From Mycobacterium dioxanotrophicus (GTDB taxonomy: Bacteria; Actinomycetota; Actinomycetes; Mycobacteriales; Mycobacteriaceae), in NCBI RefSeq assembly GCF_002157835.1, contig NZ_CP020809.1, positions 6,200,001 through 6,264,000 of the forward strand: a DNA stretch of 64,000 nt, in the 5' to 3' direction. Below the pieces are notes generated by a model. The model saw only the letters and a program-made list of their open reading frames with translations, did not search any database and was not told the origin of the DNA. Both the position numbers and the translations under genes were made by a program. Within the stretch, counting starts at the first letter, position 1; each line of letters opens with the position of its first letter. Positions 47,731 through 58,390 of this stretch are shown here, in pieces.

Positions 47731-47771
47731 AGTGGCCAGGGCCGGGATCGAACCGGCGACCTTCCGCTTTT
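47731..47771. repeat. left att core (41-bp direct repeat, tRNA-Phe 3' half)
   Basis: Identical to 58315-58355. It reproduces the T-arm, variable loop and 3' anticodon stem of tRNA-Phe but lacks the 5' half, so it is not a functional tRNA. It marks the left end of the element. Identity ends at 47730 and 47772. Confidence 0.92.
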
Positions 47772-48020
47772 AGGTCGAGGATTCTCGACACGCCGCAACG
47801 GTTGCCAATTGCCTTGCAATACAGCACCGTTCGGCATCCCATACTTTCCGACGGTTACCGTTGTTTCTCGGCGTGTCTCGGGTATATGCGACGAATAAGC
47901 GTCGGATTTTGGGTGGTGGGTGGTCCCGGCGCAGGTCGCGACTCTCGGCGATTGGAGAACCCGGTCATGGTCGCGCCTTGCCCGTAGAAAGGACCAGGTT
48001 TGACGCCGGGACCACCTGGT
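47772..48020. other. left-end non-coding region of the element (att arm)
   Basis: 249 bases without a credible gene. It contains a 27-base near-repeat of the integrase 3' end (47881-47907) and a GACCAGGT/ACCTGGTC inverted repeat at about 47990-48022. That repeat, read on the minus strand and followed by CCTTTCT, may end the head-gene transcript. Confidence 0.5.
47881..47907. repeat. 27-bp imperfect repeat, left copy (candidate integrase arm site)
   Basis: Starts GGTATATGCGACGAATAAG; 23 of 27 bases equal the stretch at 58254-58280, in the same orientation. The copies flank the att core in the circular form. They may be integrase arm-binding sites. The left copy also reads ...GICDE-stop, like the integrase end ...GISDE-stop, so it may instead be a vestige of an integrase gene. 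Confidence 0.6.
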
Positions 48021-48320
48021 CTACTGCGCCCGCACCCGGTACCGGTTGAGGACGATCTGCTCGGCGAGGGTCCAGCCGAACGACGACGCCAGGGAGTACT
48101 GGTACTCGACGTCATCGACCTTCTTGGACTGCAGGCCGGTGCCGTTGGCGGCCAGACGTGCTGATGCGGTTGCGATGACCGCGGCGATCTCGTCGTTCGG
48201 TTCGTTGCCGGTGAAGCCTCTGCCGCGGGTGTAGGCCTTGGCCATCGTGGTGACAATCGGGACGACCGTGGTCACCTCCCCGGATTGCAGAGAGGTGACC
48301 GTGGTCGGATTAACCGGCAC
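48021..48320 (-). CDS. putative head-tail connector protein
   Basis: 99 residues from a GTG at 48320, five bases after the capsid stop. VNPTTVTSLQSGEVTTVVPIVTTMAKAYTRG then a helical DEIAAVIATASARLAANG and YSLASSFGWTLAEQIVLNRYRVRAQ. Short helical proteins right after the capsid gene in siphoviruses are often gp6-like head-completion/connector proteins. The call rests on position, size and helical pattern. Confidence 0.55.
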   Translation of the reverse strand: MPVNPTTVTSLQSGEVTTVVPIVTTMAKAYTRGRGFTGNEPNDEIAAVIATASARLAANGTGLQSKKVDDVEYQYSLASSFGWTLAEQIVLNRYRVRAQ

Positions 48321-48324
48321 TGTT

Positions 48325-49179
48325 CTACGCCTCGGTGAGCAGAGTGACGGCCTTGGCCTGCAGCAGCGCGGTATCCCAGCGGGACACGACCCGGATGCCG
48401 ATGGAGTCGTAGTCACCCCAGGTCTGGTCGAGGATCTTCACCTCGGCGTTGACGTCGCGGGCTACGACCACCTTGGACATATCCACCAGGGCCACACGGT
48501 TCTTAGTGGATACGGCCGGGATGTTGTCGGTGATGATGACAGGCAGGCCCAACAGGCGCAGATCGGTGCCGTTCTGGATGGTGCTGGGATCCATCACATA
48601 CCGGGCGTCACCGGTGCCGACCTTGACCTTGCGGACCTTTGCGAACGACGCCGCGGTCATCACCCAGTGCGTGGGGTTGACCTTGTTGCCCTGGGCGACG
48701 GCCAGGCCATCGATCAGGGAATCGGGGTTGGTGAGGTCGAGGGTGCCGGTGGCGATCCCGGTCTGACGGAGAATGCCCTTGATGGTGTTGGAGGTGCCGG
48801 CGCCGTCCCATAGGGCCGCGTCGAGCGCGTTGGCGACGTCGGTCACGAGGCGGGTCCGCAGTACCGCTTCGAGGCCCACTACCGAGGTGCGGATCAGCTC
48901 GTTGGAGAGCTTCACCAGAACCTTGAGGCCCTTCATGGTCGAAGGCAGCAGGGTGACTTCGTCGAACGCGACGTCGCCGTCGGTGATCTGGGCGCCCTCG
49001 GCGACGAACCCGGCGGTGACGCCGTTGACGATGCGCGGCACCCGGACCGGGCTGGAGCTGTCGAGGACGACGGGCCCGGCGGCGAGGAACGTGGAGGCCT
49101 GTTCGAGGGGCTGGACGAGCAGGTTGGATACCTGCGACTGGATGAGAGTTGAATTGCCAGAGGTGACTTCGATTGCCAC
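48325..49179 (-). CDS. HK97-fold major capsid protein
   Basis: 284 residues. Features of HK97-like capsids: VRVPRIVNGVTAGFVAEGAQITDGDVAFDEVTL (E-loop/strand region), KLSNELIRTS, the A-domain WVMTAASFAKVRKVK, LLGLPVIITDNIPA and the C-terminal ALLQAKAVTLLTEA. No N-terminal delta domain or adjacent protease; a separate scaffold protein is encoded just upstream. It should form the shell of a small head. Confidence 0.88.
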   Translation of the reverse strand: MAIEVTSGNSTLIQSQVSNLLVQPLEQASTFLAAGPVVLDSSSPVRVPRIVNGVTAGFVAEGAQITDGDVAFDEVTLLPSTMKGLKVLVKLSNELIRTSVVGLEAVLRTRLVTDVANALDAALWDGAGTSNTIKGILRQTGIATGTLDLTNPDSLIDGLAVAQGNKVNPTHWVMTAASFAKVRKVKVGTGDARYVMDPSTIQNGTDLRLLGLPVIITDNIPAVSTKNRVALVDMSKVVVARDVNAEVKILDQTWGDYDSIGIRVVSRWDTALLQAKAVTLLTEA

Positions 49180-49278
49180 GGTTGACTCCTAGAGACGTGT
49201 CGGATGGTTGGTTCGACACGTCGCCAGGACGTCAATCGGGCTCGGGCGCCAGGCCCTGCAGAGTTGAGTGTACCGCGC

Positions 49279-49737
49279 TCAGGTTAGACCCTTGAGCGTG
49301 TCCAGCAGGGAGAACCCCGACGATGCTGGACCGCGGTTGCCCTGCCCGATGTCCCCGGCAGGCCGGCGGGTCGCCAGATGCGGCTTGGCTTCAAGCAACT
49401 CGTCGATAGCGCGTGACATCTTGTCACTCTCAGCAAGATGCTCTTCGTTGAACGGCAGGTCGGTCGGGTCGGCCAAACGTCCTGTCGCCCGGACCAGTTC
49501 GGTGTGCAACCGTTTTGCGAGGGAGTCCGCCTCACCCGCACGCTGACGGTACTTGCCGTTCTCGGTCCGCAGTTTCTCGACATACTCGCGGGGGAACGAA
49601 TCAGGTTCGGACTCGGGTTCTTCCGGAACCTCGGTGGCCAAACCCTCCACCTCTGGTGCGGCATTTGCCGCAGGTGCCTCGGGAGTGGCTGACGGGGTGT
49701 CATCGGGTTCGGTTGTGTCGGTGCTGTTCTCGGTCAT
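49279..49737 (-). CDS. phage scaffolding protein
   Basis: 152 residues from the ATG at 49737, which overlaps the stop of the preceding small gene. Acidic, disordered N-terminus (TTEPDDTPSATPEAP), a central coiled coil (YVEKLRTENGKYRQRAGEADSLAKRLHTELVRATG), and a basic/Gly tail. This is the usual build of phage scaffolds, and its place between portal and capsid fits. Confidence 0.75.
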   Translation of the reverse strand: MTENSTDTTEPDDTPSATPEAPAANAAPEVEGLATEVPEEPESEPDSFPREYVEKLRTENGKYRQRAGEADSLAKRLHTELVRATGRLADPTDLPFNEEHLAESDKMSRAIDELLEAKPHLATRRPAGDIGQGNRGPASSGFSLLDTLKGLT

Positions 49738-49907
49738 TGCTGTGTCTCCTGTCTGATTGTCGTGACCGCATCGGCCAGTTGTGTTGCCAGCTCTACCGCT
49801 TCGTCGGTGTCCATGCCGAACGTCAGGCCACCGAGGTGTAGCCGTATCGGCCGCACCGCGTCCGGTCTTGTGCCCACACGGGCGGCGAGGTTCGCAGCGA
49901 TCCGCAT
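49734..49907 (-). CDS. small element protein between portal and scaffold
   Basis: 57 residues, MRIAANLAARVGTRPDAVRP...TDEAVELATQLADAVTTI. The start overlaps the portal stop (TGATG) and the stop overlaps the scaffold start (ATGA), so it is translationally coupled to both. No family recognised; head assembly is suggested only by position. Confidence 0.6.
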   Translation of the reverse strand: MRIAANLAARVGTRPDAVRPIRLHLGGLTFGMDTDEAVELATQLADAVTTIRQETQQ

Positions 49908-51238
49908 CACGCCACCACCGGTGTCCTGGTGGCGCTGATCTTGGCGATTTCGTCGTCGGAGTAGCCGAGTTTGCCCAGCGCATACGAGGCGGGGAGAAGG
50001 CCGGCCTGGAAGAGCTTCACCACGGCGTCGGCTTCCTGCGCCACACTGCGGGTCGCGGCGTCGCACCACTGCACCCGAATGTCGTCGATCATGTTGGGGT
50101 CGCTGCCATCCCGGACCGCGATCATCAGGCGGGCGACCTGTTCCCAGGCGCGTCCGAACGTCTGCTGTCGTGCCTCGGCCCTGGCCGTCAACGATGCCTC
50201 CGCAGCCCGCAGAGCGTCCGCCGATGTGACCTGATTGGACAGCACCCCAACGTAATGCGCCGGCAAAGTGCTGACTGCCATGATCTGGCCCAGGATGACC
50301 CGCACCGAAGCCTCGTAACCACCGAGATCCGCAGCGGCGAGTTGCCCGAACTTGGCCGCCTCGTTCTCCGAGATCATCGCCCGGTGACCCTCGGGGATCG
50401 GGTTCACCTCGGCCATCACCGGCTGGTTGTCGCCGTCGAGGACGGGATCACCATTCTCATCGAGCACCGGTTCCTCGGTGAGTTCGATGCCGGTGGCCCA
50501 GCGCCGCGGCCGTCCCACATACTCCGACGTGACCATCATGTCGGCCAGGGACTTGTTCAACGCGTCGACCAGAGGCTTGAGATCGTCGATCTCCGAAGAT
50601 CCCCACTCGCCTAGCATCGAGGTGCCGTAGCTGTTGCCGATGATGCGGTCGGTGTTGCGCAGGTTCACCACCGGCACAACGCCGAGCGGGTTCGGGATCT
50701 CCTCGACGGTCTTGAACCCGTTGGCAACCGCGCCCTGCTGGTCGGCCTGCAACCGGATGATCCTGTCGCGCAGGTACATCACGGCGTGGGTCTGCTTGAG
50801 GTTGGTGTCCTCCCACCGCTTGATCGCAGCGTACGTTTGGCGGCTGCCCGGATCATTGAGTACGGCAACCTGTTTCGCGCTCTCCACCGTTACCTGCGGT
50901 CGGCCCAGTTGGTCGGCCCACACGATCACATAGCTATCGCCGAGCATCAGCGCTTCCCTGTGCGCGACACCAGAGGTTTGATCGAGGTCGTTGCGGATCC
51001 AGTCGGCCCACAGCACGGTGTCCCCGGCGAACCCGGTGATGCGCAGGCGCTCGGCCAGCGCGGTGACGGCCAGCCTCGGGATATTGCTGGCCATGATGCC
51101 GAACCTGTTACCCAGCGCCACCTTTGCCTCGGGGCTCAGGTACGCCAGCGGTTGCTTGGCCTGGTAATACCGGTCCAGGTCGGCGTACCGGGCGGCCGGC
51201 GCGTCCAATCGTTGAAGCAGATCTCCTAGCAGTGTCAT
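49907..51238 (-). CDS. phage portal protein (SPP1 gp6-like)
   Basis: 443 residues. LDRYYQAKQPLAYLSP, FGIMASNIPRLAVTALAERLRI and WIRNDLDQTSGVAHREALMLGDSYVIVW are the N-terminal wing signature of gp6-like portals; the crown/stem region includes LKPLVDALNKSLADMMVTSEYVG and QIMAVSTLPAHYVG. Forms the DNA channel at one head vertex and docks the terminase. ATG overlaps the terminase stop. Confidence 0.88.
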   Translation of the reverse strand: MTLLGDLLQRLDAPAARYADLDRYYQAKQPLAYLSPEAKVALGNRFGIMASNIPRLAVTALAERLRITGFAGDTVLWADWIRNDLDQTSGVAHREALMLGDSYVIVWADQLGRPQVTVESAKQVAVLNDPGSRQTYAAIKRWEDTNLKQTHAVMYLRDRIIRLQADQQGAVANGFKTVEEIPNPLGVVPVVNLRNTDRIIGNSYGTSMLGEWGSSEIDDLKPLVDALNKSLADMMVTSEYVGRPRRWATGIELTEEPVLDENGDPVLDGDNQPVMAEVNPIPEGHRAMISENEAAKFGQLAAADLGGYEASVRVILGQIMAVSTLPAHYVGVLSNQVTSADALRAAEASLTARAEARQQTFGRAWEQVARLMIAVRDGSDPNMIDDIRVQWCDAATRSVAQEADAVVKLFQAGLLPASYALGKLGYSDDEIAKISATRTPVVA

Positions 51239-52689
51239 GATGCAAAACTCCTTACTCTCTTACGATTTCGTTGCTGATGGAACGCGGCCCGGTCATAGGC
51301 CACGATGGCGGCCACGGCCGCGTCGATCTTGCGGGGCGAACCCCGCTTGTCCTTACTGACGAGATCACCTTGTGGGGTCGACTTGGCCACGCAGTGAGCG
51401 ATGTGCGCGGCCATCCGCGGATCCCCGTCGTGCGTGACCTGATTGGTGACGACGGCCTGGTACAGCCGGTCGGTGGCCGGCGCCATCCGGGCGGCGTGCG
51501 CGGTGTTCCACTCCAGCACCCGCTTCTCGCCGTGCCGTTTGGCCCAGTCCTCGATCTCGCTGCGCCACCCCCACGGATCGCACGCCAGCTCCACGACGTC
51601 GTACTTGGTGAACGCCACATCGACCGCGCGGGTCACGTCCTCCCGGGGTACACGCCAGCGTGGATCGCCGGGGTTCTCCCACAGACCCTCTACCCAGAGG
51701 TGCCCGTCGAGGGTGCAGCCGACCAGCGCCGTGGAGTCACCCGACGCGGACCCGTCGAACGCCAGGACGACACGCTCCCGGGGCTGTACCTTGCGCTCGG
51801 TCCGGCAGGTATCCCAGGCACCCCACGGCAACCACGCCTCGACACCGGTCACCCACTGGCCCAGACGAAGCTGCCGGAACACCGGCTCGCGCAACGTCCG
51901 TCGGGCAGCCTCGAGGCCATCCTCGGCGAGGAACGGTTCCTCGCACGCCAATGCCGGATTGGCCTGCCGCCAACCATCGCGGTCATCGGTAGGGCATCCC
52001 TCCGGGGCAGAGAACTCGCGGAGGTAGAACGCCGGATCGTCCCCGGCGCGGCCGTGCTCCACCAGGCGCCACATCACACAATCCGGCGACGACGACGGCG
52101 TGGAGATTGCCAGCGTCAGTGACTCCGGGCGCTTACCCGACACGCTGGTGACGGCCTCCCACACCGCTCCACTGACCACGTGCAGCTCGTCCACGATCAG
52201 TAGCGACGGATCGTGACCATGCAGCGCACCCGGCTCGGCAGGCAACGGCAACAGGATCGAATCGTTGTGCGGCACCACGATCCGGTCCGCGAAGATCTGC
52301 GCCCGCTTCTCCAACTCCGGATTCAACTCGATCATCCGGCGCGCCATCCGCAGCGTGATGTTGGCCTGCCGCTGATCACTGGCCACCACGAGCACCTCGG
52401 CGCTCGCGTCCCCCGCGAACAACTCAGTGACAGCGAGCATGGCGGCCAGGCCGGTCTTGCCGTTCGCACGAGCCACCGACACCAACCCCGTACGGATACC
52501 GGGCCCGTACGCGCCCCGGATGATCTCGGCCTGGAAGTCCCGCAGCCGCACCGGCTTACCCGCCCCCACACCCTTCGGGACCACCAGATACTCCGCGATG
52601 AACGCCAACCGGCGCTCGGCACGATCGGAGGGCAGCCCGGACAGATCCAGCGGCGCGGCCTTGATCGCACCCTTCGGCCCGGCCTTCAT
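51235..52689 (-). CDS. terminase large subunit
   Basis: 484 residues. ATPase: variant Walker A VARANGKTGL (Lys78) and Walker B LLIVDELH (Asp167, Glu168). Nuclease (RNase H fold): LAFDGSASGDSTALVG with Asp312, and the C-terminal KIDAAVAAIVAYDRA acidic motif. It cuts and pumps DNA into the head. Good ribosome-binding site GGGAG before the ATG. No small terminase gene was found; the HNH protein upstream may assist, as in HK97-type phages. Confidence 0.92.
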   Translation of the reverse strand: MKAGPKGAIKAAPLDLSGLPSDRAERRLAFIAEYLVVPKGVGAGKPVRLRDFQAEIIRGAYGPGIRTGLVSVARANGKTGLAAMLAVTELFAGDASAEVLVVASDQRQANITLRMARRMIELNPELEKRAQIFADRIVVPHNDSILLPLPAEPGALHGHDPSLLIVDELHVVSGAVWEAVTSVSGKRPESLTLAISTPSSSPDCVMWRLVEHGRAGDDPAFYLREFSAPEGCPTDDRDGWRQANPALACEEPFLAEDGLEAARRTLREPVFRQLRLGQWVTGVEAWLPWGAWDTCRTERKVQPRERVVLAFDGSASGDSTALVGCTLDGHLWVEGLWENPGDPRWRVPREDVTRAVDVAFTKYDVVELACDPWGWRSEIEDWAKRHGEKRVLEWNTAHAARMAPATDRLYQAVVTNQVTHDGDPRMAAHIAHCVAKSTPQGDLVSKDKRGSPRKIDAAVAAIVAYDRAAFHQQRNRKRVRSFAS

Positions 52690-52703
52690 GGCAGACTCCC
52701 AGC

Positions 52704-52922
52704 GTGGCTATTGAAGTGAGACTGACCGGTGCCGAATCCTCCGAATCGTTGACCCACGAGGGAGACTGGTTCGACATCCTGCCTAGCGGTGTGCTCGTGC
52801 TCCACTACGGCGACGGGATCAAGTCGTCCGACTACTTCGCACCACACGCGTGGGAATACGTCTCCTCCCCAATGGCGCCAGGTGAGCGCGGTGACTACGA
52901 CGTCAGGGATTCGATTCTCTAG
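52704..52922 (+). CDS. small plus-strand protein in the head module
   Basis: 72 residues from a GTG at 52704, reading EVRLTGAESSESLTHEGDWFDILPSGVLVLHYGDGI and ending VRDSIL. It lies in the gap between the minus-strand HNH and terminase genes, and its stop overlaps the HNH stop. The amino-acid make-up looks like a real folded protein, but the ribosome-binding site is weak and no family is known. Confidence 0.45.
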   Translation: MAIEVRLTGAESSESLTHEGDWFDILPSGVLVLHYGDGIKSSDYFAPHAWEYVSSPMAPGERGDYDVRDSIL

Positions 52923-53317
52923 CACCGCATACCCCCCGGGGGTGTGTGACTAAAACTTTGCCTTGGGGAGGGGTCAGTAGCGATGCCCCTTGGGGGTATC
53001 CCCCTGGTGGCTGACGGGCCGCGTGCGGCGCCGCGGGCGCGGTTGCAGGGTCCGCAGACCACGTCCACATCGCGGAGCCTGACGGGCTTGCCGGCGGCCT
53101 TGCGTGCCCATGCCTCGGGGCTGTGGTCGGCGGTCAAGTCCTCGGTGCTGCCGCAGTCGGAGCAGAAGGGTTGGAGTCGTCTGGCGCGCTTGGACAGTCG
53201 GGTCCATGCGGCGTCGTAGCCGCGATCGGTCGCCGATGGCTTGGTGTCCACCGTGTGCTCGGGGCAGCGTGGCCCGTCGCTGGGCTCGCCGCAGTCGATG
53301 CAGGCGGTCATGGTCAT
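52919..53317 (-). CDS. HNH endonuclease
   Basis: 132 residues from MTMTACIDCGEPSDGPRC. Two zinc-knuckle pairs (CIDC, FCSDC and VCGPC) and the HNH core LTADHSPEAW...DVDVVCGPCNRARGAARG. In many siphoviruses an HNH protein encoded next to the terminase is needed for cleavage at packaging. Its ATG overlaps the stop of the upstream gene. Confidence 0.85.
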   Translation of the reverse strand: MTMTACIDCGEPSDGPRCPEHTVDTKPSATDRGYDAAWTRLSKRARRLQPFCSDCGSTEDLTADHSPEAWARKAAGKPVRLRDVDVVCGPCNRARGAARGPSATRGIPPRGIATDPSPRQSFSHTPPGGMRC

Positions 53318-53640
53318 TGGTTGCCGTTCTCTTGGCGGAAGAACTGGACGTATCCGCGGAGTTCGTCGTCGCTGATCTGCTCGTCGGTGTGCGCCCAGTA
53401 GGCGAGCCACTCCCGGGTGACGTGAAGGATGACGTGGCCGTTGCCGGTGCTGACGTAGGCGTTGACGCTGTCGCCGTGTCGGTGCATGCCGATCTTCTCG
53501 TTGGTGGCTTCGAGCCAGTCGACGGCTTGCTGATCGGTCCATCCGGTTTGTTCGGTGACGACCCATCGTGTGAGTTCGTCGAGTAGTGCGCGCTCGCGGT
53601 CGGTGAGTGGCCGGCGGATGGCCGCGGGTTGGTCGGGCAT
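53314..53640 (-). CDS. hypothetical element protein
   Basis: 108 residues from the ATG at 53640, chosen for its AAGGAG six bases upstream. An in-frame ATG at 53700, overlapping the ATPase stop, would add 20 residues (MTRRRVIFPDPD...). Content: LTDRERALLDELTRWVVTEQTGWTDQQAVDWLEATNEKIG and HVILHVTREWLAYWAHTDEQISDDELRGYVQFF. Soluble, helical, acidic; no family recognised. Confidence 0.7.
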   Translation of the reverse strand: MPDQPAAIRRPLTDRERALLDELTRWVVTEQTGWTDQQAVDWLEATNEKIGMHRHGDSVNAYVSTGNGHVILHVTREWLAYWAHTDEQISDDELRGYVQFFRQENGNQ

Positions 53641-53696
53641 GTGGTGCTCCTTGCGGGTCCATATGTCGGGGTCGGGGAAGATCACTCGGCGGCGGG

Positions 53697-55061
53697 TCAT
53701 GACGCTGCCTCGTCTTTGCCGCAGGAGAGGTGTCGGTCGCCTTGCCCAGCCACTACCGGCTTGCTGCACACGATGCATGTGGGGTAGCTGGAGATGGGTT
53801 TGCCGCTGATGGTGCGGTGCCGGTTGCGGGCAGGCTTGGAGAACTGTCTGGCAGGCATGGTGGCTGGCGATGGGCCAGTTGGATCACCAGTCGGCTCAGA
53901 CATGTTGGCGTGAGCCGACTGGGGTTCTGGCTCAGTTGGCTCATCCTGTTTTGGCTGGTCGGGTCCAGTTGGCTCAGTTGGCTCACGGTCCTGCGTGACA
54001 GGGGTGGCCTGACTGGCGGTGAGCCGACTGGGGAGCTGCCAGGTCGAGGTCCGCGGGAACCCTGACGACTCGTCGATGACGCCCAGCTTCTTCTTTGCTC
54101 GCTTGAGCGTTGCCTCGCTGATCTTCTCCTTAGCGGCCTCGGTCTTGACCACCTTCGATGGCGTCGGCCCGTTTGCCGTGAGGTAGTCCTCCAGCCAGTG
54201 TTCGGCGGCGGTGCGCTCCCCGGCATCGTCGTCGTGGGCGTCACCGGCGAGGAGGTCTCGGGCGTCGACGGTGGTGTCGCCGAGCCATTCGACCGAGCCG
54301 ATCTCGGTGGGGCCGTCGTCGGTGTCCACGGTGGTGCTGACGATGCGGAACTCCACTGAGCGGTCGGTGCCGGCGTAGTTCGCTTTGGTGTTGGTGAGCA
54401 CGCGGGTGCCGGTGTCGGGGTCTTCGGCGATGGACAGGACGCAGCGGGCGACCTGGGACCAGGCGACGCTTCCGAGCATGAGTTGACCGGAGTCGGCCCC
54501 GTCGCGCTTGCCGAAGTGGGCCAGGCCGATGATGGTGACCTTGCAGCGGTCGGCCAGGGCGGCGATCGGCTCCAGGTATTGGCGGACGGCGATGTCGTCG
54601 TTGCCGGAGAATCCGGGTGGCACGACGGCCTTGGCGGGGTCGAGGAACACCATGGTGACGTTGTGCTCGCGGATGACGTCCTCGATGGCGTTGAGGTCCA
54701 GTGGGAACACCAGAGCGCCGGTGCCGAGGTCGGTCTGGACGTCGACGAAGATCACCTTGTCCATGTCGGCTCCGGCGGCGATGAGGCGTGTCACGATGGC
54801 GCTTTCGCGGGATTCCTCGGTCCCGATCCAGAGGACGGTGCCGCCGTTGCGGGTTTCGCGGGCGGCCCAGGACGACGCGACGGTGCTTTTGCCTTTGCCT
54901 TCTCGGGCGGCGAGCAGGTTGATGGCGTACTGCAGGATCAGGCCCAGTTCCCACCAGACCAACTTCTTGGCTTTGATGCGTGAGCCGCGGGTAACGATGA
55001 GCCGGCGGGTCGGCATGTCGGGGTCTACCGGGCCGGGATCGTCGGGGTGTGGTTCTGTCAC
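53697..55061 (-). CDS. RecA-like (RepA/AAA_25) ATPase with zinc-knuckle tail
   Basis: 454 residues from a GTG overlapping the stop of the DUF2742 gene (GTGA). Walker A AREGKGKST (Lys58), TVLWIGTEESRES, Walker B-like VTMVFLDPAKA and IIGLAHFGKRDGADS, as in RepA/DnaB-like hexameric helicases. A helical DNA-binding-like segment (TAAEHWLEDYLTANG...SEATLKRAKKKLGV) follows, then a Pro/Glu/Thr repeat linker and a Cys motif CIVC-x10-LSC. It probably drives element replication. Confidence 0.82.
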   Translation of the reverse strand: MTEPHPDDPGPVDPDMPTRRLIVTRGSRIKAKKLVWWELGLILQYAINLLAAREGKGKSTVASSWAARETRNGGTVLWIGTEESRESAIVTRLIAAGADMDKVIFVDVQTDLGTGALVFPLDLNAIEDVIREHNVTMVFLDPAKAVVPPGFSGNDDIAVRQYLEPIAALADRCKVTIIGLAHFGKRDGADSGQLMLGSVAWSQVARCVLSIAEDPDTGTRVLTNTKANYAGTDRSVEFRIVSTTVDTDDGPTEIGSVEWLGDTTVDARDLLAGDAHDDDAGERTAAEHWLEDYLTANGPTPSKVVKTEAAKEKISEATLKRAKKKLGVIDESSGFPRTSTWQLPSRLTASQATPVTQDREPTEPTGPDQPKQDEPTEPEPQSAHANMSEPTGDPTGPSPATMPARQFSKPARNRHRTISGKPISSYPTCIVCSKPVVAGQGDRHLSCGKDEAAS

Positions 55062-55432
55062 GCGGATCTCTTTCTCGGGATGTAGGTGTTGTCGCTGCGG
55101 TTGCGGATCCGCTGGGCCATTGCGGTCCATCCACCGGCAGCAGCGATTTCGTGGGATGCCTCGGCTCGCTTCTCCTGAGCTACCTCGGTGCGCAGCACCC
55201 AGTGCTCGCCGCTCATGGCGACGGCCAACAACTTCCTGGGGTCGCCGTCGGCGAGCTGCTGCCACGCTGGTGTACCAGCGATCGGTAGTGGTCCGTAATT
55301 CGCTTGAGCGACGACGCTTTCGAGGAACTGATGAACTGGCCACCACGAAACTTGCTGGGATGCGGGAGAACCCGCACCGTGGCTATCGGTGCGGGTCTCC
55401 AGCTTGTCGCGAGTTGTGGCCTGATCGGTCAT
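55058..55432 (-). CDS. DUF2742 protein
   Basis: 124 residues. QQVSWWPVHQFLESVVAQANYGPLPIAGTPAWQQLADGDPRKLLAVAMSGEHWVLRTE matches, from memory, DUF2742, a family found in phiRv1/phiRv2-type elements and mycobacteriophages. Function unknown. Its start overlaps the stop of the next gene upstream and its stop overlaps the ATPase start, so it is in one translational unit with them. Confidence 0.72.
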   Translation of the reverse strand: MTDQATTRDKLETRTDSHGAGSPASQQVSWWPVHQFLESVVAQANYGPLPIAGTPAWQQLADGDPRKLLAVAMSGEHWVLRTEVAQEKRAEASHEIAAAGGWTAMAQRIRNRSDNTYIPRKRSA

Positions 55433-55788
55433 CGGATCGCTTCGGTGGCGTCGATGAGGCTGTCCAGTGCGGCCCGCAAGTAGTCTCCTGCGTTGCCTGG
55501 AGTGGTGCGCAGCAGCGCGTACGCGGCCCGCACCGCTCGATGGGCGGCGATCATTGCAGTGTCCGCAGCGTCAGAACGGCCAGCCCACGTGTCGGCGAGG
55601 TCGGCGGCCTCAAGGAGCGCCCGTGCGACTGTCCGGGCATCTTCCGTCGTGTAGTCGAAGCAGCCGTGGTATACGAGCGGCTCGTCATCTCCTTTGACGT
55701 TGATGATCGTGCCGTCCGCTCGTTGTACGACAACCACTCGGATGTCGTTGGTGGCGAGGTGTTCTGGAAGCTGCATCGGCCGTGACCA
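55429..55788 (-). CDS. hypothetical element protein, 5' end uncertain
   Basis: The protein-like frame reads MQLPEHLATNDIRVVVVQRADGTIINVKGDDEPLVYHGCFDYTTEDARTVARALLEAADL and ends EAIR at 55429. The first in-frame ATG is at 55788 (119 residues), with a poor ribosome-binding site. Protein-like sequence continues upstream in this frame (TESDDWYADEGVTQRLVW) to a GGAG-preceded ATG at 55877, but that ATG is in another frame. A one-base shift between 55800 and 55877 would give one gene of about 149 residues. Confidence 0.55.
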   Translation of the reverse strand, partial: WSRPMQLPEHLATNDIRVVVVQRADGTIINVKGDDEPLVYHGCFDYTTEDARTVARALLEAADLADTWAGRSDAADTAMIAAHRAVRAAYALLRTTPGNAGDYLRAALDSLIDATEAIR

Positions 55789-55889
55789 GACGAGCCGTTG
55801 TGTGACTCCCTCGTCGGCGTACCAGTCGTCTGATTCGGTGTCAGCACCGGCGGCAGGGCGATCTCCGTTTGTGTCATGATGGTGTTCTC

Positions 55890-56033
55890 CTAGATCTCTG
55901 CTGAGTGATGGGTTACTGACGGCCTCGGGGTGGCAGCCCTGGGGTCGTCGTCTTTTCCGGGCCGCAAATCTTCGGTCCGGTCGGCCTCCGGATCGAGGCC
56001 GAGGTCTTCGAACTGCGGGTATGTCCGCATCAT
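55890..56033 (-). CDS. small element protein
   Basis: 47 residues, MMRTYPQFEDLGLDPEADRTEDLRP...HHSAEI, starting in an ATGA overlap with the excisionase-like gene. Acidic and probably disordered. No family known. The tight coupling argues that it is real. Confidence 0.5.
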   Translation of the reverse strand: MMRTYPQFEDLGLDPEADRTEDLRPGKDDDPRAATPRPSVTHHSAEI

Positions 56034-56218
56034 GCGGCGCCATCGCCGAATTGCTGTTCCTCCCAAGCGATTACGTCGGACAGCCTGTAGCGGCAATGCC
56101 GACCAAAGCGGGCGTAGCGCGGCCCTTTTCCCTGGCTCGCCCACTGCGCGAGCGTGGCGACGGGCAGCTTCTCCCGCTCGGCCAGCTCGGTCCGGGTGAG
56201 CCAGACAACGTTCTCCAT
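56030..56218 (-). CDS. excisionase-like HTH protein (MerR/AlpA type)
   Basis: 62 residues, with GGGAG ahead of the ATG. Winged-helix motif VVWLTRTELAEREKLPVATLAQWASQGKGPRYARFGRHCRYRLSDVIAWEEQQ is the standard excisionase/AlpA fold (HTH_17). First gene of the leftward operon and divergent from the repressor; it probably directs excision and may also regulate. Confidence 0.85.
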   Translation of the reverse strand: MENVVWLTRTELAEREKLPVATLAQWASQGKGPRYARFGRHCRYRLSDVIAWEEQQFGDGAA

Positions 56219-56277
56219 AATCAACTCCCGTCGCCGTGGGACGCAAATAGGCGATAATTGTGGTTGATGCGCGTCCA

Positions 56278-56304
56278 ATGGCGACGTTAACACCTGGTCG
56301 CCAT
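56278..56304. promoter_or_regulatory. inverted repeat between xis-like and repressor genes
   Basis: ATGGCGAC and GTCGCCAT form an 8-bp inverted repeat with an 11-base spacer in the 141-bp divergent gap. A candidate operator for the repressor-like protein. Confidence 0.5.
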
Positions 56305-56323
56305 CAGCCGCAAGCGACGGCAT

Positions 56324-56353
56324 ATGACGCGCGTCGTGCGTCTGACGTACGCT
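56324..56353 (+). promoter_or_regulatory. candidate leaderless promoter of the repressor gene
   Basis: ATGACG (56324-56329), an 18-base spacer and TACGCT (56348-56353) precede the ATG at 56360 by six bases. There is no Shine-Dalgarno sequence, so transcription probably begins at the start codon. The palindrome GACGCGCGTC (56326-56335) overlaps the -35 element. Confidence 0.45.
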
Positions 56354-56359
56354 GACGGC

Positions 56360-57094
56360 ATGGATGGACCGCAGAAGCCGAAGCAGAAGCCGAATTGGAC
56401 AGAAGTTCCGCCACGCGATTGGGCCGAGGAGCAGGCGCACCGCGTGGCGCTTGAGGTCAGTCGCCTCCGCGGCAAGCGCACCGGCCAGTGGCTGGCAGAC
56501 CGCACCAGGGAACTCGGCTACCCGCTTACGCGCGCCGTGATCTCCGACATCGAGGTAGGCCGGCGGCGCTACGTTACGACTGCCGAGCTGATCGTCCTAG
56601 CGAGGGCGCTGGACACGGCCCCGATCGCGCTCCTCTACCCCGCGCCGTACCGGGACACGATTCAGATCCTCCCCACGCCCGAGGGTGGGCAGCCCAGGGA
56701 TTTTCAGAAAATAGTTGCAGTGCAATGGTTTTCAGGCGATCCCAAGCCGACCCTTGATCTTCCAGACAATTCGGCCCAGCCCGAGCTGACCCTTGACGCT
56801 CTCGGCCTGTCGATGGTTGACCAGATGAACTACGACTCGCACCTTCTCGCGTTGACGCGCGCCAGGAAAGCGAGTGATCTGGCTGCGCGCAAATGGGACT
56901 TGATCGCCAAACTCCGCGTCCGTCGTAACGCGAAACGTCAAGGGCTTGACAAGGTTTCCGACGAAGAGCTCGACGACCTCACTGCAGAGATCGGCGAGCT
57001 GCAGGAGCGGATCGACGAACTTTGGAAGCTCGGCGGCAGGGATCTGCACGCGGAGGCTGTCGACGAGATGTTCGGAGACCGAGATGGCGGGTAG
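56360..57094 (+). CDS. HTH repressor-like regulator of the element
   Basis: 244 residues from the ATG at 56360. XRE-like HTH with AHRVALEVSRLRGKRTGQWLADRTRELGYPLTRAVISDIEVGRRRYVTTAELIVLARALD. The C-terminal half is a long charged coil (LAARKWDLIAKLRVRRNAKR, DEELDDLTAEIGELQERIDELWKLGG) probably used to oligomerise. No peptidase (LexA-type) domain is seen. Its end overlaps the integrase start, so both are on one transcript. Confidence 0.82.
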   Translation: MDGPQKPKQKPNWTEVPPRDWAEEQAHRVALEVSRLRGKRTGQWLADRTRELGYPLTRAVISDIEVGRRRYVTTAELIVLARALDTAPIALLYPAPYRDTIQILPTPEGGQPRDFQKIVAVQWFSGDPKPTLDLPDNSAQPELTLDALGLSMVDQMNYDSHLLALTRARKASDLAARKWDLIAKLRVRRNAKRQGLDKVSDEELDDLTAEIGELQERIDELWKLGGRDLHAEAVDEMFGDRDGG

Positions 57095-58271
57095 GCCTCC
57101 GCTGCGGATCGGGCAGCACGGGAAGATCACCAGAACCGAGATCTCCGAAGGTGTTTGGGTGGCGCGGTGCCGGTACCGCGACCGTGATGGAGTGACACGT
57201 CGGATGGAGCGAATGAGCCCAGACGGCGCTGCTGATGAGTACGGCAGAGGTGCCGAGAATGTCTTGCTCGACGCGATTGGAGCGCGCCGGCCGCCGGGCT
57301 CGGGGAGCATCACCGGCACCACCCTGCTCGGCGATCTGCTGACCGGTTACATCGCGCGTTGTCGGGACGACGGGGAGTTAGCGCCCAAGAGTGTCGACAC
57401 CTACGAGGCGACGATCAGCACGGTCAAGCCGCGGTTCGTCGGGGTGCGTGTCAGTGAGGCGACACCGGGTCTGCTCGACGAGATTCTTCGAGGCATCCGC
57501 CGGGACCACGGCGCGACGCGCGAGCGGCACACGAAGGTGGCGCTAAACGCGGTACTGACGGACGCGGTGCTGGCCGGTGCCATCGGGTCGAATCCGGTGC
57601 GCGAGCTCGGCACCCGACGTAAGCGGAAGACCGACAAACGGACGAAGGGCGCGCCGGCCCTCGGTGTCGACCAGGTGCGTGCACTTCTGACCGCGCTGGA
57701 GGGGTCTGAGGTATGCAAACAGAAGGACCTCCGCGACCCGGTCATCGTGTTCGCGGCGACCGGGTTACGGAGGTCTGAGGTGTTGGCGTTGCGGTGGGAG
57801 GACGTCGATCTTGATGGGCGTGTGCTGACGGCAGCGTTCTCTGTGGTGCGGTTGAAGGGCAAGGGCCTGGTGAGGCAGGACCGCACGAAGGGCGGCGGGG
57901 AGGCGCGGACACTCCCTCTCCCCCGGTTCGCTGTGGATGCACTGCGCAGACGTAAGGATGAATGGTCGGGACCGAACACGGCCGGGGTGATCTTCCCGTC
58001 GTCCACGGGCACGCTGCGGGACCCGGACAACATGGGAAAGCAGTGGCGCGAGGTTCGTACGTCGCTCGGACTGCCTGATGTGACGTCGCACAGCTTCCGC
58101 AAGACGGTGGCCACGATGATCGACGATGCTGGACTGTCGGCGCGGATCGGGGCCGACCAGCTCGGGCACGCGCGGCCATCGATGACGCAGGACGTCTACA
58201 TGAGCCGCGGGCAGGTGCACACCGAGGTGGCCGATGTGCTGGACAAAGCGGTCGGTATAAGCGACGAATAA
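57084..58271 (+). CDS. int: tyrosine recombinase / integrase
   Basis: 395 residues from the ATG at 57084, inside the repressor gene and preceded by CGGAGA. N-terminal arm-binding and SAM-like core-binding domains (TLLGDLLTGYIARCRDDGELAPKSVDTYEATI). Catalytic residues: Arg229 in ATGLRRSEVLALRW, His336 and Arg339 in HSFRK, His362 in LGHARPS and Tyr372 in QDVYMSRG. Ends 43 bases before the tRNA-Phe att core, which it presumably recognises. Confidence 0.95.
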   Translation: MAGRPPLRIGQHGKITRTEISEGVWVARCRYRDRDGVTRRMERMSPDGAADEYGRGAENVLLDAIGARRPPGSGSITGTTLLGDLLTGYIARCRDDGELAPKSVDTYEATISTVKPRFVGVRVSEATPGLLDEILRGIRRDHGATRERHTKVALNAVLTDAVLAGAIGSNPVRELGTRRKRKTDKRTKGAPALGVDQVRALLTALEGSEVCKQKDLRDPVIVFAATGLRRSEVLALRWEDVDLDGRVLTAAFSVVRLKGKGLVRQDRTKGGGEARTLPLPRFAVDALRRRKDEWSGPNTAGVIFPSSTGTLRDPDNMGKQWREVRTSLGLPDVTSHSFRKTVATMIDDAGLSARIGADQLGHARPSMTQDVYMSRGQVHTEVADVLDKAVGISDE

Positions 58272-58280
58272 ACGTCAGTT
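58254..58280. repeat. 27-bp imperfect repeat, right copy (candidate integrase arm site)
   Basis: GGTATAAGCGACGAATAAA and eight further bases, covering the last integrase codons and stop. Matches 47881-47907 at 23 of 27 positions, same orientation; 34 bases from the att core on this side and 109 on the other. Confidence 0.6.
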
Positions 58281-58314
58281 CGAGATGTGGAGTACAGCTA
58301 GCTATACCCTCTGA

Positions 58315-58355
58315 AGTGGCCAGGGCCGGGATCGAACCGGCGACCTTCCGCTTTT
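58315..58355. repeat. right att core (41-bp direct repeat)
   Basis: Second copy of the 41-bp core at 47731-47771, here inside the complete tRNA-Phe gene. The element end restores the tRNA 3' half. Confidence 0.92.
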
Positions 58356-58390
58356 CAGGCGGACGCTCGTACCAACTGAGCTACCTGGCC
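58317..58390 (-). tRNA. tRNA-Phe (GAA)
   Basis: 74 bases; acceptor GGCCAGG/CCTGGCC with discriminator A, D-arm AGCTCAGTTGGTACGAGC, anticodon loop CTGAAAA (GAA) and T-loop GGTTCGATCC. CCA is not encoded. It is the integration site of the element; its 3' half is the att core. Confidence 0.95.

What the first reader, a model, noticed from the sequence alone, without database searches (positions are those of the whole stretch)
47731..58355. 10.6-kb head-module element in tRNA-Phe: phiRv-like or capsid-forming satellite
The element has integrase, excisionase-like protein, repressor-like protein, a replication-type ATPase and a full DNA-packaging/head set (HNH, terminase, portal, scaffold, capsid, connector) but no tail, lysis or protease gene. 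It has clean att repeats, so it is not simply a decayed prophage. That gene set is what capsid-forming phage satellites carry: they build their own heads and borrow tails from a helper. It also parallels phiRv1/phiRv2 of M. tuberculosis, whose biology is unclear. A mycobacterial satellite with its own small head would be of real interest.
Basis: partly seen in the sequence, partly recalled or inferred. Interest (0 to 1): 0.82.

Follow-up and report, generated by a model that had tools for sequence, protein, structure and literature searches.

The report
Capsid-making phage satellite in a mycobacterium
This 10.6-kb piece of mycobacterial DNA looks like an intact parasite of bacterial viruses that carries its own head and DNA-packing genes but no tail genes; a few related pieces turn up in environmental DNA cut as if packed into particles, and most relatives carry a conserved RNA fold in front of the capsid gene.

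Summary
Confirmed: a 10,584-bp element between perfect 41-bp repeats in tRNA-Phe, with integrase, Xis-like, repressor-like, AAA ATPase, HNH, TerL, portal, scaffold, HK97 capsid and one neck adaptor; no tail, lysis, protease or TerS gene detected. It is not a decayed prophage: 39 tRNA-bounded elements (window included) at 13 tRNA isotypes have median 10,665 bp (38 of 39 within 9.6-11.3 kb), gene order is fixed, and head genes are under purifying selection. (2) A conserved RNA element before the capsid gene: hairpins with a CUGGY-type loop and covarying stems (130 of 152 sites paired versus 141 of 2390 elsewhere), whose arm is predicted to mask the capsid Shine-Dalgarno; no Rfam 15 match. It works like a capsid-forming PICI but lacks two listed features; similar elements are already candidate Mycobacterium PICIs. 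Helper, tail and phiRv kinship are unproved.

The parts
47731..47771 (.). attL-side 41-bp repeat (copy of the tRNA-Phe 3' half)
   Evidence: identical to 58315-58355
48021..48320 (-). neck adaptor (head-tail connector), 99 aa
   Evidence: phrog_442; profile A2 hits PDB 8zdj gp9 E 5e-7; fold match to mycobacteriophage Douge connector chain 8zdj_a, prob 1.00, TMq 0.62, Foldseek E 0.057
48325..49179 (-). major capsid protein, HK97 fold, 284 aa, lacking the N-terminal (delta) part of the family model
   Evidence: PF05065; TIGR01554 matched from position 109 of 385
49180..49278 (-). 99-nt capsid-gene leader with the RNA element
49183..49193 (-). Shine-Dalgarno region of the capsid gene (contains AGGAG), paired in the predicted fold
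49218..49232 (-). CUGGY-loop hairpin H2; its 5' arm and loop can pair with the Shine-Dalgarno instead
49244..49256 (-). CUGGY-loop hairpin H1
49279..49737 (-). head scaffolding protein, 152 aa
   Evidence: phrog_233 E 1e-5, phrog_4708
49740..49907 (-). small ORF of unknown function
   Evidence: no PHROG match; similar ORFs in some relatives
49907..51238 (-). portal protein, 443 aa
   Evidence: PF05133, phrog_104 E 7e-99; PDB 9d94 1e-21, titled Bxb1 portal and connector assembly
51235..52689 (-). terminase large subunit, 484 aa
   Evidence: PF03354, PF20441, phrog_9 E 2e-90
52704..52922 (+). 72-aa ORF on the other strand; doubtful gene
   Evidence: similar ORF in a few relatives; only PHROG match E 0.078
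52956..52977 (-). predicted cos site, GAC / 10-nt presumed 3' overhang 52963-52972 / GGCAAAG, inside the 3' end of the HNH ORF; conserved right half continues to 52941
   Evidence: by analogy with relatives; coordinates:
52919..53317 (-). HNH endonuclease
   Evidence: phrog_144 1e-10
53314..53700 (-). conserved protein of unknown function, 128 aa
   Evidence: no PHROG match; 11 matching ORFs in loci, repeats included; alignment A3
53697..55061 (-). AAA_25 ATPase, replication-type
   Evidence: PF13481 2e-16; phrog_10729 6e-35
55058..55432 (-). protein of unknown function, found in several relatives
55429..55875 (-). ORF of unknown function
55890..56033 (-). small ORF (47 aa), found in several relatives
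56030..56218 (-). excisionase-like small DNA-binding protein
   Evidence: phrog_66 2e-8
56324..57094 (+). repressor-like ORF, 256 aa, divergent from the rest
   Evidence: position and orientation only; no family match
57084..58271 (+). tyrosine integrase
   Evidence: PF00589 4e-18, phrog_1 9e-54
58315..58355 (.). attR-side repeat in tRNA-Phe (tRNA 58316-58390, - strand)

Best explanation
An intact capsid-forming phage satellite. SHOWN by sequence: it sits in tRNA-Phe between perfect repeats with its own tyrosine integrase; it encodes a head and packaging set ending at the first neck ring, the adaptor; it carries the motif at which relatives are cut to linear DNA; and its capsid gene has a conserved leader predicted to fold in two ways. 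INFERRED: after a helper siphophage infects or is induced, the element excises, replicates with its AAA ATPase, builds a small head from its own scaffold and capsid protein (no protease is needed because the capsid protein lacks the delta region), cuts and packs its 10.6-kb circle at cos with HNH and TerL (TerS unrecognised or from the helper), closes the neck with its own adaptor, and takes the stopper, tail and lysis from the helper. Capsid translation is held back while the Shine-Dalgarno is paired with the hairpin arm, and is released when the CUGGY hairpins form, probably when a protein binds their loops.
For: Perfect att and unbroken genes. Conserved size: 39 non-duplicate tRNA-bounded elements, window included, median 10,665 bp. 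One order, HNH-TerL-portal-scaffold-MCP-adaptor, wherever all six were detected, three contigs being turned round at cos. Median dN/dS 0.16-0.33 for seven genes, 8 to 68 comparisons each, duplicate loci not dropped. MCP relatives in 55 of 297 genomes of the genus, own included. IMG/VR contigs of at most 18.6 kb hold 54 of 54 TerL relatives, 50 of 51 MCP relatives and 43 of 43 portal relatives at 60% or more. No phage-record match reaches 60% identity: TerL 0 of 3048, portal 0 of 1679, MCP 0 of 70 matching records; adaptor no match at E 0.01. Cos: 3 of 186 contigs run terL...HNH with an integrase inside; 10 nt missing in L230 versus L243; motif in 34 of 68 elements, 37 sites versus 7 expected. 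L083 with a 278-bp terminal overlap. Two elements in genome G698 share a head module 99.3-99.6% identical over 6.0 kb. RNA: covariation 0.576 versus 0.175 shuffled; further set 65 of 78; capsid SD core unpaired 0.03 versus 0.32-0.47 for four other genes. The same genome holds a tailed prophage with a 1292-aa tape measure protein.
Against: No helper, particle, excision or transfer has been observed for this element. TerS and protease, listed for cfPICIs, were not detected. Only one of the three free contigs shows a clean 10-nt gap (L198 shows 7 nt among other gaps, L227 none that is clean). Half of the 68 elements lack the cos motif as I wrote it, and some of the 37 matches look unlike the rest by eye. 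The free contigs carry relatives with TerL 36-64% identical, not the window's close kin. In G698 the integrase sides of the two elements do not match, so this shows module exchange, not transposition of one element. The closed RNA state is favoured by 18 kcal/mol, so the open state needs a ligand or kinetic folding that is not shown; same-element SD pairing beats swapped leaders only modestly (mean z -0.83, better in 71% of 149).
Confidence: 0.8

Rival explanations
1. A decayed prophage: a remnant that lost its tail and lysis genes.
For: Has only the head part of a phage genome.
Against: Perfect att sites, unbroken ORFs, purifying selection; similar size at 13 tRNA isotypes; no match at 60% identity or more among 50,697 phage records; relatives exist as free DNA cut at one site.
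Confidence: 0.04
2. A domesticated device of the host, such as a gene-transfer-agent-like particle maker, kept for the cell's benefit.
For: The only solved capsid relatives found for the MCP are Rcc01687 and a second HK97-family chain, E 2.8e-5; that Rcc01687 is the Rhodobacter gene transfer agent capsid is recalled. Only head genes are present.
Against: Sporadic presence (55 of 297 genomes), integrase and att, changing integration sites, and cutting of its own DNA at one site in relatives point to a selfish mobile element.
Confidence: 0.04
3. A self-sufficient minimal virus that makes tail-less particles or uses an unrecognised short tail gene, needing no helper.
For: Some ORFs of unknown function remain (53314-53700, 55058-55875); MiniFlayer in PMC10690885 is a satellite with short tail fibres (passages read).
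Against: The head operon ends with the adaptor about 250 bp before att; no lysis gene was found; the unknown ORFs lie in the early region and are found in only part of the relatives.
Confidence: 0.08
4. The leader hairpins are not a switch but an mRNA-processing or stabilising site (for example RNase III cutting of the long stem), or an anti-termination site of boxB type.
For: A long stem encloses the Shine-Dalgarno; a pentaloop hairpin in tandem resembles boxB in outline (recalled).
Against: Pairing with the region -75..-35 exceeds 0.5 for 70% of 149 capsid Shine-Dalgarno cores versus 5-9% for portal, TerL, scaffold and adaptor genes, which processing alone would not need.
Confidence: 0.35

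Closest known systems
Candidate PICIs of Mycobacterium genomes (PMC10654092, passages read)
   Same: Integrase plus major capsid protein, tRNA integration with tyrosine integrase, helicase, terminase and scaffold genes in some.
   Different: That paper defines them only by integration machinery and capsid gene. In the passages read there is no cos site, no free form, no size rule and no RNA element; its supplement was not readable.
Capsid-forming PICI (cfPICI)
   Same: Own capsid, portal, HNH, large terminase and connector; no tail; works as own-head, borrowed-tail.
   Different: No TerS and no protease detected; separate scaffold; one connector only; about 10.6 kb. Feature list taken from PMC10690885 (passages read); the original cfPICI paper was not seen.
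MulchRoom / MiniFlayer satellites of Streptomyces phages (PMC10690885, passages read)
   Same: Actinobacterial satellites with TerL, portal, scaffold, MCP, head-to-tail adapter and HNH; small heads of 42-44 nm.
   Different: Helpers are virulent phages; those genomes carry TerS and lack an obvious replicase. [quoted passage not shown]
phiRv1 / phiRv2 prophage-like elements
   Same: Small integrated elements grouped with candidate PICIs in PMC10654092.
   Different: Not compared here by sequence; recalled to carry a protease-capsid pair and, for phiRv1, a serine integrase.
Neck of mycobacteriophage Douge (PDB 8zdj) and portal of Bxb1 (PDB 9d94)
   Same: Adaptor fold and portal family.
   Different: Those belong to complete tailed phages.

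Membership tests
capsid-forming PICI | own major capsid protein | tested here: met
   PF05065 4e-37
capsid-forming PICI | portal protein | tested here: met
   PF05133, phrog_104
capsid-forming PICI | head maturation protease | tested here: not met
   no protease family in the 16 ORFs scanned with PHROGs; the MCP lacks the region a protease would remove (inference)
capsid-forming PICI | head-tail connector(s) | tested here: met
   one adaptor; relative L212 has a second connector gene
capsid-forming PICI | large terminase and HNH | tested here: met
capsid-forming PICI | small terminase | tested here: not met
   none detected; only a weak match of the Xis-like protein to a TerS family, E 0.02. 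An unrecognised TerS is possible; no fold test was made
capsid-forming PICI | no tail or lysis genes | tested here: met
capsid-forming PICI | mobilised by a helper phage whose tail it uses | not testable with these tools
   a tailed prophage is present in the same genome, no functional link shown
candidate Mycobacterium PICI (PMC10654092) | integrase and major capsid gene in one phage-like region | tested here: met
phiRv1/phiRv2-like | sequence kinship to the phiRv elements | not tested
   no named record of these elements was reached
cos-packaged DNA | linear form with ends at one site near the terminase genes | tested here: inconclusive
   met in relatives L227, L230, L198; for the window itself only the motif is seen
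known Rfam RNA family | covariance-model match of the capsid leader | tested here: not met
   no match at 49180-49278 up to E 5; five relatives gave only tRNAs at gathering cut-offs

The most novel reading that the evidence does not exclude
A whole group of actinobacterial capsid-forming satellites controls head production with a previously undescribed protein-responsive RNA switch: a protein, perhaps encoded by the helper phage and made late, binds the tandem CUGGY hairpins in the capsid leader, frees the Shine-Dalgarno and so permits satellite heads only when helper tails are being made.
Probability: 0.2. Interest if true: 0.88.

Novelty: new variant of a known kind. Interest (0 to 1): 0.68.

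Why it matters
Candidate PICIs, the phiRv elements among them, were described in mycobacteria from gene content. Free DNA of relatives, cut at one site, is sequence evidence that this group is really packaged, and names the ends to look for. The conserved capsid leader is an RNA element with strong covariation, without a match in Rfam 15, and offers a concrete, testable point where a satellite could sense its helper. It is also a handle for finding such satellites: two exact DNA patterns from it, which favour near kin, hit 37 IMG/VR contigs, 36 of which carry the satellite genes.

Tried and rejected
Decayed prophage: rejected (see rivals). Cos as a fixed spacer between HNH and TerL: the gap varies from none to 2.4 kb, so it was located from contig ends. 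Hairpins as a property of capsid leaders in general: 0 of 9 phages had one with a stem of 4 or more on the sense strand within 200 nt upstream of the MCP; TM4 has one at 215 nt, and Giles and Dubu have one antisense. SD pairing: 1 of 10 (9 phages and one own prophage; Kromp, 0.51) had the SD paired to -75..-35, but Che8 (0.01) and Dubu (0.13) have a masked SD by other pairing. Own-genome prophage regions: five stems of 6 or more in 120 kb, none within 2 kb upstream of a capsid gene. Contig C5 as a helper: the longest ORF listed is 818 aa; ORFs across the 20-kb borders and the last 9.9 kb were not examined. Human-gut record MT836167 (12.3 kb): 31-33% identical in TerL part and portal, not of this group. 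PADLOC: no defence match for six ORFs. A fold test for TerS among the unknown ORFs was not run.

Limits of counts: the att search covered 116 loci and could see elements of roughly 6-19 kb only; 74 loci gave no tRNA-linked repeat, many because IMG/VR trims contigs; three duplicates were dropped. The first hairpin counts dropped 16 loci that I took as duplicates and loci with too little upstream sequence; at least two same-sequence pairs stayed in (L044/L086, L064/L124); one search used distinct sites only. The further set left out loci brought in by the hairpin patterns and contigs of the first set; it is not phylogenetically independent. In one search the closing C-G pair is invariant by choice of sites; the other five pairs are not. 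Start codons were chosen by a script that favours a Shine-Dalgarno, in the same way for all genes. One search kept 80 of 103 loci, the largest contig 21.3 kb; the seven portal matches of 25-37% lie on contigs of 4-83 kb. The contig-length tally uses 93 rows that I took as metagenome-only among the 120 of 1058 proteins listed.

Changed on checking: the two G698 elements share only the head module, not the integrase side; confidence was lowered from 0.82 to 0.80 for that.


Full report
OBSERVATION. The element is real. It lies between identical 41-bp repeats at 47731-47771 and 58315-58355, the right copy being the 3' half of tRNA-Phe, 10,584 bp start to start. Going leftwards from the tRNA: integrase and a divergent repressor-like ORF (+), then on the - strand a Xis-like protein, unknown ORFs, an AAA_25 ATPase, a conserved 128-aa protein, HNH, TerL, portal, a tiny ORF, scaffold, HK97 capsid and a 99-aa connector. 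No tail, lysis or protease family was found among 16 ORFs scanned, and no small terminase beyond a weak match (E 0.02) of the Xis-like protein. The 256-aa 'repressor' has no family match and is so called only from its place. The host belongs to the genus that also holds G057, whose contig C221 is the same as NZ_UPHT01000173.1 of Mycobacterium attenuatum, so it is a Mycobacterium in the sense of that taxonomy.

RELATIVES. The capsid protein has relatives in 55 of 297 genomes of the genus at E 1e-20. The portal is found at E 1e-40 in 19 of 298 genomes of the order and 4 of 296 of the phylum, own genome counted. Further TerL relatives come from Nocardia, Gordonia, Tsukamurella, Cryobacterium, Nocardioides and Smaragdicoccus. 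The order HNH-TerL-portal-(variable)-scaffold-capsid-connector holds wherever all six were detected, apart from the turned contigs below; a few loci miss one or more of the six. In part of the group TerL is only 33-42% identical while portal and capsid often stay at 55-94%, so TerL is exchanged between elements. Of 116 loci, 39 non-duplicates (window included) show a direct repeat linked to a tRNA; they use 13 tRNA isotypes (Val, Ser, Arg, Lys, Leu, Pro, Gly, Ala, Phe, Asn, His, Tyr, Met) and measure 9,637-11,320 bp apart from one of 13,246. The closest integrase found in the first set (80%, L039) also sits in tRNA-Phe. NG86 dN/dS medians are 0.16-0.33 for MCP, portal, TerL, scaffold, HNH, connector and ATPase, 8 to 68 comparisons each, duplicates not dropped. 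One genome, G698, holds two elements whose head modules are 99.3-99.6% identical over two stretches totalling 6.0 kb, while their integrase sides do not match: recent exchange of the head module.

NOT A PROPHAGE REMNANT. Among 50,697 phage records no match to TerL (3048 records), portal (1679) or capsid (70) reaches 60% identity, the best listed being about 34%; the connector finds nothing at E 0.01. In IMG/VR 54 of 54 TerL relatives, 50 of 51 capsid relatives and 43 of 43 portal relatives at 60% or more lie on contigs of at most 18.6 kb; the collection trims proviruses, which helps this. The exception, L209 on a 43.9-kb contig of which 20.9 kb are held, has an integrase, a transposase, a head-maturation protease and two unknown ORFs among the five scanned, no tail family. 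Of 20 relatives searched for the tRNA-Phe site, one (G012) has two att-like copies 43 kb apart; in that island only an integrase (28%) and a 44-residue TerL stretch (E 0.009) match the window's proteins.

COS AND FREE DNA. Of 186 different IMG/VR contigs, three of 9.8-10.3 kb have a turned order: terL starts at contig position 34-81 and the contig ends 18-36 bases after the HNH match (L227, L230, L198). Each carries an integrase between connector and HNH (L240 is L230 reversed), so the att region should be inside: they read as excised molecules. L227 and L230 begin at the same base of a motif, GGC(A/T)(A/G)AG, and two shorter contigs (L100, L101) begin there too. Aligned with L243, which is uncut there, L230 lacks exactly ten bases between GAC and GGC; L198 against L258 lacks seven at that place, among other gaps; L227 has no clean comparison. 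A missing ten-base stretch is what trimming of a 3' cohesive end would leave (inference from library chemistry). In elements with TerL at 59% or more, 34 of 68 carry the motif between the end of HNH and terL, 37 sites against 7 expected; half do not, and some matches look poor by eye. The window has GAC-CCCTCCCCAA-GGCAAAG on the - strand at 52956-52977, inside the end of the HNH gene. In addition L083 has a 278-base overlap of its ends and no tRNA gene, as a 9.7-kb circle would, and contigs of metagenome-only capsid relatives pile up at 10-12.5 kb: 17 of 93, against 6 and 5 in the neighbouring 2.5-kb bins.

THE CAPSID LEADER. A k-mer survey outside the main genes pointed to one non-coding stretch, between scaffold and capsid. 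It holds one to three short hairpins whose loop is CUGGY or a close variant closed by C-G, the last one mostly about 50 nt before the start codon. With a stem of at least four, 73 of 93 elements have one on the sense strand and 4 of 93 on the other. Choosing sites only by the seven loop bases, 130 of 152 upstream sites have three or more further pairs, against 141 of 2390 elsewhere in the same elements and 1 of 17 antisense. On 121 distinct sites the pairs covary: score 0.576, shuffled 0.175, slid versions at most 0.246. A further set gave 65 of 78 elements and 107 of 126 sites, against 95 of 1659 elsewhere and 3 of 18 antisense. Two exact DNA patterns taken from it hit 37 IMG/VR contigs, none over 18.9 kb; 36 of the 37 carry the satellite genes, L232 does not in the half that is held. 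Nine phages lack it within 200 nt of the capsid gene. Rfam 15 has no match there.

HOW THE LEADER MAY WORK. In the predicted fold of the window's leader the 5' arm and loop of the last hairpin (UCCU) pair with the capsid Shine-Dalgarno (AGGA), closing it; two relatives fold alike. Over 149 leaders the core of the capsid Shine-Dalgarno is unpaired with median probability 0.03, against 0.47, 0.43, 0.41 and 0.32 for portal (151), TerL (129), scaffold (57) and connector (89); pairing with -75..-35 exceeds 0.5 in 70% against 5-9%. The hairpin and the closed form exclude each other. In the window the closed form is favoured by 18 kcal/mol. Leader and Shine-Dalgarno of the same element fit better than swapped ones in 71%, mean z -0.83, a modest effect. 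Among ten control leaders one pairs in that way, and two others have a masked Shine-Dalgarno by other pairing. I read this as a translational switch that a loop-binding protein opens; the first hairpin, which in the window's predicted fold does not pair with the Shine-Dalgarno, still keeps the loop, which suggests that the loop is bound. The binder is unknown: capsid, scaffold or a helper protein. mRNA processing and anti-termination remain possible.

MECHANISM OF SPREAD. The connector is the neck adaptor: its family profile hits gp9 of the mycobacteriophage Douge connector (PDB 8zdj, 5e-7; fold match prob 1.00, TMq 0.62, though Foldseek E is only 0.057), and the portal matches that of Bxb1. 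The element's own particle would thus end at the ring to which a siphophage stopper and tail attach (recalled anatomy). The same genome has a tailed prophage with TerL, portal, capsid, major tail, a 1292-aa tape measure protein, minor tail proteins and endolysin at about C1 2.366-2.394 Mb, and an integrase 51% identical to the element's at C1:2396467-2397630: a candidate helper, no more. A 10.6-kb genome would fit a T=3-size head if HK97's 39.7 kb in T=7 is scaled by volume (recalled figures, inference).

KNOWN OR NEW. PMC10654092 (passages read) already lists Mycobacterium regions with integrase and capsid gene as candidate PICIs, equates those of slow growers with phiRv1/phiRv2 and says that induction by phages has not been demonstrated. 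PMC10690885 (passages read) gives the cfPICI feature list and describes Streptomyces satellites with their own heads. PMC10023795 and PMC11389934 (passages read) take small actinobacterial elements as possible satellites and review satellite families. The supplement of PMC10654092, which could list this very element, was not readable. Searches for the leader element in print (listings only) and for satellites in mycobacteria and actinobacteria (listings) showed nothing on the leader or on a cos site of such elements; most subscription papers and all preprints are outside that library. So the kind is known; a version without detected protease and TerS, of near-constant size, with a cos inside the HNH gene and a capsid-leader RNA element is, by these searches, a new variant.

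Noticed in passing
L200, L208, L209, L212 and others: TerL is exchanged as a unit: many elements have TerL only 33-42% identical to the window's while portal and capsid are often 55-94% identical.
   Followed up: partly
L313 and L314 (G698): Two elements in one genome share a nearly identical head module; the stretch around the capsid leader and the integrase side fall outside the matching parts.
   Followed up: partly
G000:C1:2396467-2397630: Next to the tailed prophage of the same genome lies an integrase 51% identical to the element's.
   Followed up: no
G000:C5 (69,875 bp), 282-358: A separate contig of the genome carries its own tRNA-Phe gene, a partial match to the att core; possibly a plasmid.
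   Followed up: partly
G012:C1:712849-755987: A 43-kb island with a different integrase sits in the same tRNA-Phe site in a relative.
   Followed up: partly
window 52704-52922 (+): A 72-aa ORF on the opposite strand next to cos is similar to ORFs in a few relatives; a gene or conserved DNA of the packaging site.
   Followed up: no
L139 (G276): The only tRNA-bounded element outside the usual size, 13.2 kb, with 2.4 kb between HNH and TerL.
   Followed up: no
G000:C1:3394700-3395479 and 2031053-2031700: Two further capsid-like genes in the own genome, the first matched as a major head protein; surroundings not worked out.
   Followed up: partly
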